From: Ardenticatenales bacterium
GTDB taxonomy: Bacteria; Chloroflexota; Anaerolineae; Epilineales; Epilineaceae
DNA length: 34,539 bases
Assembly: GCA_020853525.1 (NCBI GenBank)
Contig: JADYYS010000052.1
Location: forward strand, 1 to 34,539
Direction: 5' to 3'
The translations under genes were made by a program, and so were the position numbers. The notes under the pieces were generated by a model. The model ran no database searches, was not told the origin of the DNA, and saw only the letters and a program-made list of their open reading frames with translations. Below are positions 15,445 through 27,995 of this stretch, in pieces; the stretch's first letter is position 1; every line of letters starts with the position of its first letter.

Positions 15445-15591
15445 AGCGCCGGCAGCTGAAGCTGGCCGGCTGGGGGCCTTCGGCCATGGTGCCCGCCTTC
15501 GCGGGCACCCCGATTCGGGCGCCCGCGAAGGCGGGCGCCACGGCGGCCCGTCAGGGACGCCTCCAGCCGGCCAGCTTCAGCTGCCGGCGCT
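15445..15591. repeat. long palindromic repeat element, copy A (ccoQ-ccoP gap)
   Basis: Perfect 29-bp terminal inverted arms at 15445-15473 and 15563-15591. Inside are two tetraloop hairpins, 15488-15509 (9-bp stem, CTTC loop) and 15518-15539 (9-bp stem, GAAG loop), whose cores are reverse complements of each other. The flanking core (CCTTCGGCC and the GCCCGCGAAGGCGGGC hairpin) is shared with copy B at 27815-27952. There is no open reading frame. It splits the cbb3 operon between ccoQ and ccoP. Confidence 0.85.
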
Positions 15592-15633
15592 TCCGGCGAA
15601 CCGAGCGTGCCGGCACATCCGAAGGAGCACACG

Positions 15634-20463: not shown

Positions 20464-23103
20464 GTGAGCTCGCAAGACCTTCGTGCGCCTGAGGTCGATG
20501 TCACCGCCGGCCGCATGCGGCGCATCGACCTGCACTGCCACAGCAGCGCCAGCAACCGGTCCGACGAAGCGCTGCTCAACGCCATTCGCTGCCCCGAGAG
20601 CTACAGCGCGCCGGCCGACGTCTTCGCCCAGGCCAGGCGCCGCGGGATGGACGTCGTGACGATCACGGACCACGACACGATCGACGGGATCGCGTCGTTG
20701 GTTCAGGGTCGTGGGCGCCCCGTCGACGCCGCCGCCGACGACCTCCTCATCGGCGAGGAGCTGACATGCTGGTTCCCCGAGGATCGCTGCAAGATCCACC
20801 TGCTGCTCTGGGGCATCACGCCGGGCGACCACGAGGATCTGCAGGCCGTCGCGCACGACATCTATGCCGTGGCGGCGATCGTGGAGCAGCGCCGGATCGC
20901 CCATGCGGTCGCCCATCCGGTCTATCGCCAGAACGACGTGCTCGAACGCTGGCACCTCGAGCGGCTGATCCTCCTGTTCAAGGGGTTCGAGACGCTGAAC
21001 GGGGCGCACAGCGCGCTCCATCGCCGGTCCCTCGAGCCGGTGCTCGATCAGCTCACGCCCGACGGGATCGATGCGCTGGCCGACGTCCACGGCCTGCGGC
21101 CCTTGTGGCCCGAGCCCTGGATCAAGACCCGCACCGGCGGCAGCGACGACCACGGCCTGCTCAACATCGGCCTCACGTACACCGAGTTCGACGCGGACGC
21201 GCGTACGGTTCCCGACATCCTGGAGTGCCTGCGCACCGCCCGCTGCCGGCCGGGCGGCGAGGCCGGATCGAGCGTGAAGCTGGCGCACAACCTCATGAGC
21301 GTCGGCATCCACTACGCCGCCCGCCAGGTCCGACCGCGGTCGACGTCATCGATGTCATCTTCGTCGGCGTCGGCGACGTCGGGGATGATGCAGATGCTCG
21401 TCGGCGAGCACCCGCGATCGACGGGCCGTCGGCGCGCCGCGATCTCGATCGCGGTGAAGCGCACGGGCGGACGTCTGCGGCGCGCGTTCGTCCGGTCGAA
21501 GCCCGTCGGCGCGTCCGGCAGGACCGGCAGCACGCTCCTCGCCGACCTGATCGCCGCATCCTGCCAGACGCGCATCGCCGAGCATCCCGCCGTCCATCAC
21601 GCCGTGAAGAACGGAGTCGCACCGCTGTCCGAACACGCCGCGATGTTCGCGTTCATGGCCGCCGTCCACCGCGACGTGTCGGGCGGCATCGCCCAGTCCG
21701 TCGCCGACGCGCTGTCGGACGGCCGCATCGGGGCGATCTTCGACGCGTTCGCGGCCATCCTCATGCAGCAGTGCATCCAGCTGCCGTACTACTTCTCGCT
21801 GGCCCATCAGAACCGTGAACGCAATGACCTGGCGCGGATCACCGGCCAGGGCCGCGTGCCGACGCGCGAGAGCTTGCGCGTCGGTGTGTTCACGGACACG
21901 TTCGATGATGTGAACGGCGTGGTCCGCTTCGTCCGCGAGATGGGCGACGAGGCTACGGAGCGGCGGCTGGCGCTGACCGTACACACGTGCAGCAGCGCGC
22001 CGACGTACGAGGCGCCCTATCGCAAGAACTTCGCGCCGCTCGTCGAGCGCGCGCTGCCGTACTACCCGGACCTCGCGCTGACGCTGCCGCCCGTCGTGGA
22101 GATCCTGGAGTGGGCGGACCGCCAGCAGTTCGACGCCGTGCACGTCGACACACCCGGGCCGATGGGCCTGTGCGGCTGGCTCGTGGCCAAGCTGCTGCGC
22201 ATCCCCGTGATCGGGACGTACCACACGGACTTCCCGGCGTACGTTCGGTCGATGAGCGGTGGCGACTTTCGCATGACGGCCGCGACGAGCGGCTACGTCG
22301 GCTGGTTCTACGGCCAATTGGCGGCCGTCCTGTCCCGCAGCCAGGCCTACCACGGGCAGCTGGCCGATCTCGGAATACCGGACGACCGGATCCACGCCGC
22401 CCCGCCCTGCGTCGACGCCGCCGCGTTCAACCCTCGCCATCGCGACGTCCGCATCTGGGCCGGCCTCGGCGTTCACGAGCCGTTCCGCCTCTTCTTCTGC
22501 GCCCGCCTCAGCGAAGAGAAGAACATTTCATTCCTCACGTCGGTCTTCCGGGCGATCTGCGCCAAGCGGCGCGACGTGGCGCTCGTCATCGCGGGCGACG
22601 GCCCCTGCGCCGCGTCGCTCGGCGAGTCGCTCGCCGGTCTGCCCGCCTACATGCTCGGCCGCCAGGACGACGCCGCCCTCGCCCGGCTGTACGCCAGCGC
22701 CGACCTCTTCGTCTTCCCATCGCGCACGGACACGCTCGGCCAAGTCATCCTCGAGGCGCAAGCAAGCGGCCTGCCGACGCTGGTCAGCGACGAGGGCGGC
22801 CCGCGGGAGATCGTCAACGACAACCGCACGGGTCGAGTGCTGTCGGCGGCCGATCCGGCGCACGACGTTCCATTGTGGGTCGGTGTGATCGAAGACCTGC
22901 TCCGGGACGAGCCGCGCCGCCGCCGCCTCGGCCGCAACGCCGCCGACCGCATGGCTCGCTACACGGCGTCGGCGTCGTTCGATGCGTTCTGGGAGGTGCA
23001 TTGGCGGGCGGCGGTGGGGGTGGTTGGCGCGGAGTCGCCGGCATTGGCAGAGGCGGTGGGGGTGGTGGAGACCCGTTCGAAGTATCGGTATGGGAAGGTG
23101 TAG
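20464..23103 (+). CDS. PHP-domain phosphoesterase fused to a GT4 glycosyltransferase
   Basis: An 879-residue fusion. GTG at 20464 has a strong AGGAGGG upstream. The N-terminal PHP domain (about 20-270) shows the metal ligands: DLHCHSSAS (Asp22, His24, His26), ITDHDTIDG, EEL, HAVAHP and GGSDDH. A ~200-residue helical linker follows, beginning with a Ser-rich low-complexity stretch (about 293-312). The C-terminal half (about 470-860) is a GT-B glycosyltransferase: GVFTDTFDDVNGVVRFV (N-terminal acceptor side), VIGTYHTDFPAY, then RLSEEKN, AGDGP, and EAQASGLPTLVSDEGGPREIV with the ExxxxxxE catalytic/nucleotide block. It is similar in type to mannosyl/glucosyl transferases for glycolipids. Donor and acceptor are unknown; the PHP part could hydrolyse a phosphate on the product or a precursor. 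Confidence 0.9.
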   Translation: MSSQDLRAPEVDVTAGRMRRIDLHCHSSASNRSDEALLNAIRCPESYSAPADVFAQARRRGMDVVTITDHDTIDGIASLVQGRGRPVDAAADDLLIGEELTCWFPEDRCKIHLLLWGITPGDHEDLQAVAHDIYAVAAIVEQRRIAHAVAHPVYRQNDVLERWHLERLILLFKGFETLNGAHSALHRRSLEPVLDQLTPDGIDALADVHGLRPLWPEPWIKTRTGGSDDHGLLNIGLTYTEFDADARTVPDILECLRTARCRPGGEAGSSVKLAHNLMSVGIHYAARQVRPRSTSSMSSSSASATSGMMQMLVGEHPRSTGRRRAAISIAVKRTGGRLRRAFVRSKPVGASGRTGSTLLADLIAASCQTRIAEHPAVHHAVKNGVAPLSEHAAMFAFMAAVHRDVSGGIAQSVADALSDGRIGAIFDAFAAILMQQCIQLPYYFSLAHQNRERNDLARITGQGRVPTRESLRVGVFTDTFDDVNGVVRFVREMGDEATERRLALTVHTCSSAPTYEAPYRKNFAPLVERALPYYPDLALTLPPVVEILEWADRQQFDAVHVDTPGPMGLCGWLVAKLLRIPVIGTYHTDFPAYVRSMSGGDFRMTAATSGYVGWFYGQLAAVLSRSQAYHGQLADLGIPDDRIHAAPPCVDAAAFNPRHRDVRIWAGLGVHEPFRLFFCARLSEEKNISFLTSVFRAICAKRRDVALVIAGDGPCAASLGESLAGLPAYMLGRQDDAALARLYASADLFVFPSRTDTLGQVILEAQASGLPTLVSDEGGPREIVNDNRTGRVLSAADPAHDVPLWVGVIEDLLRDEPRRRRLGRNAADRMARYTASASFDAFWEVHWRAAVGVVGAESPALAEAVGVVETRSKYRYGKV

Positions 23104-25139: not shown

Positions 25140-25616
25140 GTGGCGCGCGCAAACGTGTACGAAGTCACGTTGGCTGACCTTCCGGAACAGCGCACCGCCG
25201 TGGTCTGCGGACATGCCGACACCAGCGAGGGCATCGGCGACTTCCTCGGCGGCGCCTACGGTGAGGTCATGGGGCTCGTCGGGCGGCAGAACCTGCGGCC
25301 CGCCGGCATGCCGTTCGGCCGGTACCGGATCACCGCAGACGGCTTCGACATCGAGGCCGGGATCGGCGTCGAGGGCGACCTGCGGCCCGAAGGGCGCGTC
25401 GAGGCCTCCACACTCCCCGGCGGCCGGACCGCACGCACGATGCACATCGGAGCGTACAGCGGCGTGGCCGCGGCCTACGAAGCGGTCGCGAGCTGGCTGA
25501 AGGACAACGGACACGTCTCGACGGATGCGCCCTGGGAGTGCTACCTCGACGAGCCGAGCGTATCGGAGCCGAGGACCGAGGTCTTCTTCCCCTGCCGGGC
25601 AGCCTTGAACACCTGA
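25140..25616 (+). CDS. GyrI-like small-molecule-binding domain protein
   Basis: A 158-residue SHS2/GyrI-like protein (AraC effector-binding domain family) with no DNA-binding domain. Landmarks: YEVTLADLPEQRTAVV at the start, GMPFGRYRITADGFDIEAGIGV, TMHIGAYSGVAAAYEAVASWL, DAPWECYLDEPSV and RTEVFFPCR at the end. The stand-alone form can bind or hydrolyse small hydrophobic or cationic compounds. GTG at 25140 is used, without a clear ribosome binding site. The upstream region is shared with the divergent SOUL gene, so the two may be co-controlled. Confidence 0.88.
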   Translation: MARANVYEVTLADLPEQRTAVVCGHADTSEGIGDFLGGAYGEVMGLVGRQNLRPAGMPFGRYRITADGFDIEAGIGVEGDLRPEGRVEASTLPGGRTARTMHIGAYSGVAAAYEAVASWLKDNGHVSTDAPWECYLDEPSVSEPRTEVFFPCRAALNT

Positions 25617-25738
25617 CCGCGGCACCGGGGGTCCGGTCAGATCGACCCCACAGGCGACAAGTCAAGGCGAACCAACGATCCGCCGCCCAGCTCCGCCCGG
25701 CCGTTCACCGCCGGGTCCAACCCGGAGAGCCGCGATAT

Positions 25739-25813
25739 CTCGGTTAGATTGCCCGTCGATCTAACCGAGACAGGCGCCGTGTCTCGGTTAGATCGACGGG
25801 CAATCTAACCGAG
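25739..25813. repeat. nested palindrome with perfect 34-bp arms
   Basis: Two perfect 34-bp inverted arms (25739-25772 and 25780-25813) flank a 7-nt centre. Each arm is itself an inverted repeat: CTCGGTTAGAT and ATCTAACCGAG (11 bp) around a 9-nt centre. The unit therefore occurs four times in alternating orientation. It is less GC-rich than its surroundings and non-coding. The remainder of the 25617-25941 gap contains only the diverged repeat at 25869-25920. Confidence 0.9.
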
Positions 25814-25868
25814 GTTCGCACCGCACGTCGGTGAGGTCCCACGAACCGCCAACGCACCGCCATCCGCG

Positions 25869-25941: not shown

Positions 25942-26427
25942 TCACGCCCCGCTCCGCCGCAGCCGCTCCAGCTCGACGAGTCGCCACCGCAGCACGTCCG
26001 CATCGTCCGCGACGTAGGGCGACACGTCGTGGCCGCTGGACGGCTTCCCGTGCGCGCCGAGATCCATCGTCGGTTCGCGGTTCCAGGCTGGGCCGACGCG
26101 GGGGATCGGAATCACCGCACGTTCGGGTGCCGAGCGTCCGTCGTTCCCGATCACCCGGGCGCGCACGATCCGATCCTCCGACCAGTCCACGCCGGACTTC
26201 TCTGATGTCGTGCACGCCGCGCGGTGCGGCACACCGGCCCGGTCCTCGTAGTCCACGGTGAACGTCCAGCGTCGGAAGGGCGTCCAACGGATGCGGCGGA
26301 CCAGGCCGCCATGTGCGGCGACGGCGGCTGCGATCCGCTCCCGGTCCTTCGCGTCGTCTGCGAGCACGCTGACGATGTAAACTCCGACCACGATGACGAC
26401 TTCGATGAACGATGCTTCGGACGACAT
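25942..26427 (-). CDS. hypothetical membrane-anchored protein
   Basis: A 161-residue protein I do not recognise. ATG at 26427 has GGGAGG about 9 nt upstream. Residues 7-22 (FIEVVIVVGVYIVSVL) form one N-terminal helix. Then a charged helix (ADDAKDRERIAAAVAAHGG) leads to a compact domain with strands VRRIRWTPF, WTFTVDYED, RAACTTSE and VDWSEDRIV. The C-terminal part is polar and ends with a helix (VLRWRLVELERLRRSGA). The domain composition suggests a small globular cytoplasmic or surface domain on a membrane anchor. It lies between two diverged direct repeats and is divergent from hpd. Confidence 0.7.
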   Translation of the reverse strand: MSSEASFIEVVIVVGVYIVSVLADDAKDRERIAAAVAAHGGLVRRIRWTPFRRWTFTVDYEDRAGVPHRAACTTSEKSGVDWSEDRIVRARVIGNDGRSAPERAVIPIPRVGPAWNREPTMDLGAHGKPSSGHDVSPYVADDADVLRWRLVELERLRRSGA

Positions 26428-26546
26428 CTGAGGAGACCTCCCGTCAACGGCGGGTTCGAACGCGCCGCCGTGACCCCTCTGTGTACGCGGCCCGCGCACA
26501 CGGGTTGCCCCGCCGCGACGGACCGATCCGACGCCCCCGATTCCCT

Positions 26547-26575
26547 TTGCCAAACCGTCCCGCCGATGTTAGTCT
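26547..26575 (+). promoter_or_regulatory. candidate hpd promoter
   Basis: TTGCCA (26547-26552), a 17-nt spacer and TAGTCT (26570-26575) lie 84 nt before the hpd ATG. The region is the better-preserved copy of the direct repeat also seen at 25869-25920. Confidence 0.45.
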
Positions 26576-27802: not shown

Positions 27803-27814
27803 GGGCGGATGACC

Positions 27815-27952
27815 GGCGGCTGAAGCCGACCGGCTGGATGCCTTCGGCCGTGCGCCTGCCTTCGCAGGCGCCAAGACAAGTCGGAGCGCCCGCGAAGGCG
27901 GGCGCTATGGCGGCCCACCAGGGCCGCCTCCAGCGGGCCGGCTTCAGCCGCC
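27815..27952. repeat. long palindromic repeat element, copy B (hpd-hmgA gap)
   Basis: Arms at 27815-27837 and 27930-27952 pair over 23 bp with two mismatches. Inner tetraloop hairpins are 27852-27871 (8-bp stem, CTTC loop) and 27885-27906 (9-bp stem, GAAG loop). Order, loop sequences, CCTTCGGCC and GGCGGCCC..CAGGG..CGCCTCCAG all match copy A at 15445-15591, so the two are homologous. Confidence 0.85.
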
Positions 27953-27995
27953 CGTGACTCGGACGCCCGTGACTCGGACGACCGTGACTCGGAGG
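27951..27995 (+). repeat. three 15-bp tandem repeats carrying the hmgA ribosome binding site
   Basis: CCCGTGACTCGGACG at 27951-27965 and 27966-27980, then ACCGTGACTCGGAGG at 27981-27995. Two point changes in the last unit turn CGGACG into the GGAGG ribosome binding site, 5 nt before the hmgA ATG at 28001. The first unit overlaps the end of repeat copy B. Confidence 0.85.

What the first reader, a model, noticed from the sequence alone, without database searches (positions are those of the whole stretch)
25739..25813. Nested perfect palindrome: four alternating copies of an 11-mer in 34-bp arms
Perfect 34-bp arms around a 7-nt centre, with each arm itself an 11-bp inverted repeat, give a structure that can form one long hairpin or two side-by-side hairpins. 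Such perfection over 75 bp without coding capacity argues for recent origin or selection. It could be a recombination or integration site, a protein-binding cruciform, or a mobile-element tip.
Basis: seen in the sequence. Interest (0 to 1): 0.62.

Follow-up and report, generated by a model that had tools for sequence, protein, structure and literature searches.

The report
Phased DNA array tied to HU-like protein
The 75-base perfect palindrome is one of five short arrays of regularly spaced (every 22 bases) mirror-symmetric DNA sites in this bacterium, and arrays of this kind sit beside genes for an unusual DNA-binding protein family (HU-HIG) in Chloroflexota and Bacteroidota, which suggests that these proteins read their own private DNA arrays.

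Summary
The palindrome is real (arms 25739-25772 and 25780-25813, 34/34 complementary, 7-nt centre; about 6e-13 expected by chance). It is not an isolated hairpin. It is four alternating copies of a directional, dyad-like 11-mer (TCTCGGTTAGA) on an exact 22-bp lattice. The same genome has four more arrays of this kind (C25, C27, C33, C19), all on a 22-bp lattice with different spacers. A 3-unit lattice search found 27 further loci in Chloroflexota, Bacteroidota, Verrucomicrobia, Treponema, Acidobacteria and a cyanobacterium (about 0.01 expected). In four of five array-bearing Chloroflexota genomes one array lies beside an HU-HIG gene, twice directly on its promoter. Conversely, of 22 HU-HIG-type genes collected by protein similarity from four other species, 21 have an adjacent tandem array with 20-24-bp period, against 2 of 332 control windows (p about 3e-20); canonical HU genes have none (0/6). 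An orphan array with the same unit was found elsewhere in one of those genomes, as here. Best reading: an orphan binding array for an HU-HIG-family protein, made perfectly palindromic by a recent inverted duplication. Binding itself is untested. REP/RAYT, transposon-tip and assembly-artefact readings are not supported.

The parts
25738..25814 (.). whole array: four alternating units on a 22-bp lattice, forming the nested perfect palindrome
25738..25748 (+). unit 1 TCTCGGTTAGA
25749..25759 (.). spacer 1 TTGCCCGTCGA (11 bp)
25760..25770 (-). unit 2 TCTAACCGAGA (reverse orientation)
25771..25781 (.). spacer 2 CAGGCGCCGTG with the 7-nt palindrome centre 25773-25779
25782..25792 (+). unit 3 TCTCGGTTAGA
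25793..25803 (.). spacer 3 TCGACGGGCAA, exact reverse complement of spacer 1 (trace of inverted duplication)
25804..25814 (-). unit 4 TCTAACCGAGG (reverse orientation, last base changed)
25140..25616 (+). neighbour: GyrI-like small-molecule-binding protein; array starts about 120 bp after its stop
25942..26553 (-). neighbour: ORF of 203 aa without Pfam match (may not be a gene); its 3' end faces the array

Best explanation
The palindrome is an orphan array of 22-bp-phased dyad binding sites for a sequence-specific HU-superfamily protein of the HU-HIG family. Protein dimers would sit on one dyad each, about two helical turns apart and hence on one face of the DNA, building a small bent or wrapped nucleoprotein assembly. 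Next to the HU-HIG genes the array most likely serves autoregulation; orphan arrays such as this one would be further binding sites. The array's perfect symmetry arose by a recent inverted (fold-back) duplication of a two-unit half. Shown: lattice, paralogues, distribution, and the gene-array linkage. Inferred: binding, which HU-HIG protein reads this unit, and function.
For: Five arrays on exact 22-bp lattices in this genome with non-conserved spacers. With gaps of 1-30 allowed, all 11 dyad pairs in three other genomes have exactly 22-bp period. A 3-unit lattice was found in 27 loci of several phyla. Orthologous arrays in Hallella and Prevotella keep dyads and period while changing A..T to G..C across the dyad and diverging 22/88 against 12/252 in the left flank. 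HU-HIG genes beside arrays: own C25; G212 and G401, array directly upstream of the start codon; G199, array just downstream. Of 22 HU-HIG-type loci, 21 have a 20-24-bp-period array adjacent against 2/332 control windows, p 3e-20; Pfam HU-HIG in 17 of 21 scanned proteins. Canonical HU genes 0/6. An orphan array with the same TTATCA..TGATAA unit as an HU-HIG promoter array in Bacteroides finegoldii, and five dispersed copies of the HU-HIG promoter array in G401.
Against: No binding was measured. Arrays in Verrucomicrobia, Treponema, Acidobacteria, Prevotella and Oscillatoria were not seen beside an HU-HIG gene. Dyad symmetry is clear in only 8 of the 22 HU-HIG arrays; in the rest the tandem period is the main signal. 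The HU-HIG set comes from only four species.
Confidence: 0.66

Rival explanations
1. The array is a site cluster for an unrelated transcription factor or nucleoid protein; the nearby HU-HIG gene in C25 is incidental.
For: Own HU-HIG gene has a different repeat in its upstream region; four of five own arrays are not beside an HU-HIG gene.
Against: Linkage of 22-bp arrays to HU-HIG genes in four of five Chloroflexota genomes and 21/22 loci elsewhere.
Confidence: 0.15
2. The array is the repeat-bearing middle of a small non-autonomous mobile element (like BOX or BrickBuilt), spread by a transposase.
For: In Anaerolineae Bin_81R six copies share conserved outer sequences and contain 2-5 units; BrickBuilt of P. 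gingivalis is a MITE with 23-nt tandem repeats (PMC4596501).
Against: In this genome and in Verrucomicrobia homology stops at or near the array edges; only one rve-type transposase and two Y1 transposases in the genome, none with the motif nearby.
Confidence: 0.11
3. Neutral minisatellite that became a perfect palindrome by template switching; no function.
For: Spacers 1 and 3 show inverted duplication.
Against: Period fixed at 22 across unrelated genomes with unrelated spacers, compensatory half-site changes, HU-HIG linkage.
Confidence: 0.05
4. RNA hairpin: terminator or processing element.
For: Strong fold (-77.6 kcal/mol) near the 3' ends of a gene and an ORF.
Against: No U-run, no Rfam match; sister arrays are not hairpins of this kind and unit orientation is unrelated to neighbouring genes.
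Confidence: 0.02
5. Assembly or fold-back artefact.
For: Assembled draft contigs; no reads available.
Against: Inverted repeat ends at unit borders; paralogous arrays on other contigs, C25 sharing the same centre.
Confidence: 0.01

Closest known systems
HU-HIG family (Pfam PF18291; HU domain fused to wHTH, Ig or Gly-rich motif), with PF14848 HU-DNA_bdg and DUF4469 relatives
   Same: The gene family found beside the arrays; own C25 protein matches at 5.1e-08, above the curated cut-off
   Different: No tandem phased DNA array is described for it in any text found here; the main paper on the family (Burroughs et al. 2017, from memory) is not in the library
IHF and other sequence-reading HU-superfamily proteins
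   Same: HU-fold dimers that bend DNA at defined sites (from memory)
   Different: IHF sites are single, asymmetric and not phased arrays (from memory); canonical HU genes tested here have no array
BrickBuilt MITE of Porphyromonas gingivalis (PMC4596501)
   Same: Intergenic short tandem repeats with 23-nt period in a member of Bacteroidota, with several copies per genome
   Different: Carries leader, tail and IS5-like terminal repeats; dyad symmetry and HU-HIG linkage not tested
REP/REPIN elements with RAYT transposases
   Same: Intergenic palindromic repeats, dispersed
   Different: Here the genome's RAYT gene (C9) is flanked by another palindromic family, not by this one
Plasmid iterons and partition-site arrays
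   Same: Sites about two helical turns apart beside the gene of their binding protein (from memory)
   Different: Chromosomal, dyad units, several orphan arrays per genome, no replication or ParA gene seen beside them

Membership tests
Phased dyad array linked to HU-HIG genes (defined here) | at least 3 similar units with constant 20-24-bp period | tested here: met
   Four units, starts 25738/25760/25782/25804, period exactly 22
Phased dyad array linked to HU-HIG genes (defined here) | dyad symmetry of each unit | tested here: met
   TCTN5AGA, extended to ATCTN5AGAT or GTCTN5AGAC in part of the units; the centre of the unit is asymmetric
Phased dyad array linked to HU-HIG genes (defined here) | an array with the same unit beside an HU-HIG gene in the same genome | tested here: met
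   C25 array 394 bp from HU-HIG gene C25:22788-23216; not at the promoter position seen in G212 and G401
Phased dyad array linked to HU-HIG genes (defined here) | binding by the HU-HIG protein | not testable with these tools
   needs shift, footprint or ChIP
REP/REPIN | copies flank a RAYT (Y1_Tnp) gene | tested here: not met
   RAYT L309 is flanked by the 15445-15598 family; no TCTCGGT motif in L309 or L310
IS/transposon end of the rve type (IS21, Tn7, Mu-like multi-site ends) | motif at the ends of a transposase-bearing element | tested here: not met
   One rve gene in the genome (C49), no motif nearby
BrickBuilt-type MITE | shared leader/tail or terminal inverted repeats around the tandem repeat | tested here: not met
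   Own copies share no sequence clearly beyond the array
Rfam RNA families | covariance-model match | tested here: not met
   0 matches in window

The most novel reading that the evidence does not exclude
HU-HIG genes and their private phased arrays form a large, unrecognised class of two-part genome elements: each paralogue reads its own 21-23-bp-phased array, with orphan arrays scattered over the chromosome acting as anchoring (partition- or looping-like) or self-marking sites. The expanded HU-HIG families of Bacteroidota would then be many parallel systems per genome.
Probability: 0.3. Interest if true: 0.88.

Novelty: new variant of a known kind. Interest (0 to 1): 0.7.

Why it matters
HU-HIG proteins are a widespread HU-superfamily branch with no target that I could find described. 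The near-universal array beside their genes in the sample tested gives each protein a concrete DNA substrate that can be tested at the bench, and turns an odd palindrome into a marker for finding HU-HIG sites in other genomes. It also offers a possible reading for unexplained tandem repeats such as BrickBuilt.

Tried and rejected
REP/RAYT origin: rejected, the genome's RAYT uses another palindrome. Transposon multi-site ends: one rve gene only, no motif. RNA element: no Rfam hit, no orientation bias. Promoter operator of a fixed gene family: no shared neighbour among 57 flanking proteins, and array positions include convergent regions. Phage origin: the exact 3-unit lattice pattern had no match in viral contigs; a freer search found only dyads with mixed spacings. 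First exact two-unit pattern on genome contigs gave nothing. HU-HIG homologues in phages and viral contigs: none. Gemmatirosa hit (L315): weak, inside coding DNA, dropped. Sequence strings of the units in papers: nothing relevant. A consensus-based dyad test on the HU-HIG arrays was weak (6 of 21 at p<0.05).

Full report
Arms 25739-25772 and 25780-25813 are perfect reverse complements around a 7-nt centre. Chance expectation is about 6e-13 and shuffled windows reach only 9-12 bp arms. The site is intergenic. As RNA or DNA strand it would fold into one long hairpin, but this turned out not to be the point.

A similarity search in the same genome (G000, 4.27 Mb, 76 contigs; window = contig C52) found related clusters at C25:23610-23741, C27:107069-107145 and C33:84735-84833, and a pattern search added C19:92852-92950. 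Laid out in steps of 22 bp, every unit of every cluster falls on one lattice: 11-bp unit, 11-bp spacer, units in either orientation. Orders are + - + - (C52), + - + + (C25), + + - - (C27), + + + - - (C33), + + + - - (C19). Spacers differ between clusters, so the spacing and not the spacer sequence is kept. In C52 spacer 3 is the exact reverse complement of spacer 1, and C52 and C25 share the centre; this points to a recent inverted duplication as the source of the perfect palindrome (inference).

The lattice is not private to this genome. A generic two-unit pattern hit 5 of 396 genomes of the class, with no hit of the reversed control pattern. A three-unit pattern found 27 loci in Anaerolineae, Thermoflexia, Prevotella and Hallella, Treponema, Verrucomicrobia, Acidobacteria and Oscillatoria; about 0.01 were expected by my own estimate from base frequencies. 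The unit is genome-specific, for example CATCTCAGTGAGATG in Hallella, TTTCTTASTAAGAAA in Bin_81R and AGTCTGGGCAAGACT in a verrucomicrobium. When the gap was left free from 1 to 30, all 11 pairs in three genomes still had exactly 22-bp period, and among 400 Chloroflexota genomes the only 3-unit TCTCNNNGAGA array of any period tested was the 22-bp array of this genome. Dyads of the same sequence in viral contigs have mixed spacings, so the motif alone does not impose 22. An orthologous array in Hallella and a Prevotella keeps four units and the period while all four move to G..C across the dyad (three of them from A..T, one from G..T), and it diverges faster than its left flank (22/88 against 12/252).

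Neighbouring genes of the 27 loci share no family, and the arrays lie in convergent, divergent and tandem intergenic regions. But an HU-HIG protein (PF18291) appeared at C25 and at L124. A search of all held open frames with these two proteins found further homologues immediately beside the arrays of G401 and of G212, the latter an array I had set aside as chance. In both the array lies directly upstream of the start codon. So four of five array-bearing Chloroflexota genomes have an HU-HIG gene beside one array; Thermoflexia (L125) was the exception, and no other held locus showed one.

The test was then turned round. HU-HIG-type genes were collected by protein similarity from annotated PLSDB records (many look like chromosome pieces): 22 loci in Bacteroides finegoldii, Phocaeicola massiliensis, Parabacteroides distasonis and Treponema saccharophilum. 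Scanned for three-unit dyad arrays of period 15-40, eight loci had one near the gene, all with period 21-23, and 92 kb of control flank had none. With a simple self-similarity score, 21 of 22 loci had an adjacent tandem array of period 20-24, against 2 of 332 control windows, p about 3e-20. The arrays lie about 75-185 bp upstream of the HU-wHTH-type genes and just downstream of the genes of the DUF4469-like group, which matches the downstream position in G199/L124, also a DUF4469 type. Two of the 22 (L312, L314) served as queries after their arrays had been seen; without them it is 19 of 20. Six canonical HU genes had no such array. 17 of 21 scanned proteins match HU-HIG and 8 match HU-DNA_bdg.

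Orphan arrays also recur. In B. finegoldii the TTATCAC..GTGATAA array upstream of the HU-HIG gene in L328 has a relative with the same unit and 22-bp period elsewhere (L340), with no HU-HIG frame near it and an antiviral reverse transcriptase gene (drt3b) as neighbour. Two other HU-HIG arrays (L314, L318) had no second copy in the records searched. In Bin_81R five dispersed elements resemble the HU-HIG promoter array. The window's palindrome is the same situation: an array with the same unit as one near the HU-HIG gene, but itself away from it.

Alternatives were tested. The genome's RAYT gene (C9) is flanked on both sides by the palindromic family seen at window 15445-15598 and 27812-27965, not by this one. 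The single rve transposase has no motif nearby. No Rfam family matches. Own copies share nothing clear beyond the array, unlike the MITE-like copies of Bin_81R or the BrickBuilt MITE of P. gingivalis with its 23-nt repeats (PMC4596501).

Limits. Binding is not shown. Which HU-HIG protein reads the TCTCGGTTAGA unit is inferred from proximity, and the own gene has a different, 20-bp-period repeat in its upstream region. The HU-HIG sample is from four species. The literature library holds no text on HU-HIG targets, but subscription papers, including the main HU-superfamily survey, could not be read, so novelty is provisional.

Noticed in passing
window 15445-15598 and 27812-27965: A second palindromic repeat family (about 82% identical copies; more at C25 and C33) that flanks a RAYT/Y1 transposase gene at C9 on both sides: a classical REPIN/RAYT system in the same genome.
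   Followed up: partly
L157-L162 (Anaerolineae Bin_81R): Six copies of a mobile-looking element (matches of about 80-170 bp) with 2-5 internal 22-bp units and conserved outer sequences; one copy is the promoter region of an HU-HIG gene.
   Followed up: partly
L191-L307 (viral contigs): 117 viral stretches with three or more TCTCNNNGAGA dyads, often TCTCGTCGAGA/TCTCGACGAGA, at mixed spacings (31-33, 22-24, 35-37, 40 bp): an operator-like viral family of unknown meaning.
   Followed up: no
L133, L134: Acidobacterial arrays directly preceded by repeated CCTGTGGAAAAC, resembling DnaA-box-like sequence; two related contigs of one MAG.
   Followed up: no
L180, L184 (Hallella mizrahii): Arrays of 22-bp period in which one half-site triplet changes (GTCATCTCAGTGTTTTGAC beside GTCATCTCAGTGAGATGAC), so units need not stay symmetric.
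   Followed up: no
L340 3001-3110: Orphan 22-bp array of Bacteroides finegoldii about 1 kb from an antiviral reverse transcriptase gene (drt3b).
   Followed up: partly
G000:C25, about 80-180 bp upstream of the HU-HIG gene start at 22788: A different repeat, CGACAGTGTCG/CGACGGTTTCG/CGACGGCTGCG with 20-bp period, upstream of the own HU-HIG gene; may be its operator or chance in GC-rich DNA.
   Followed up: partly
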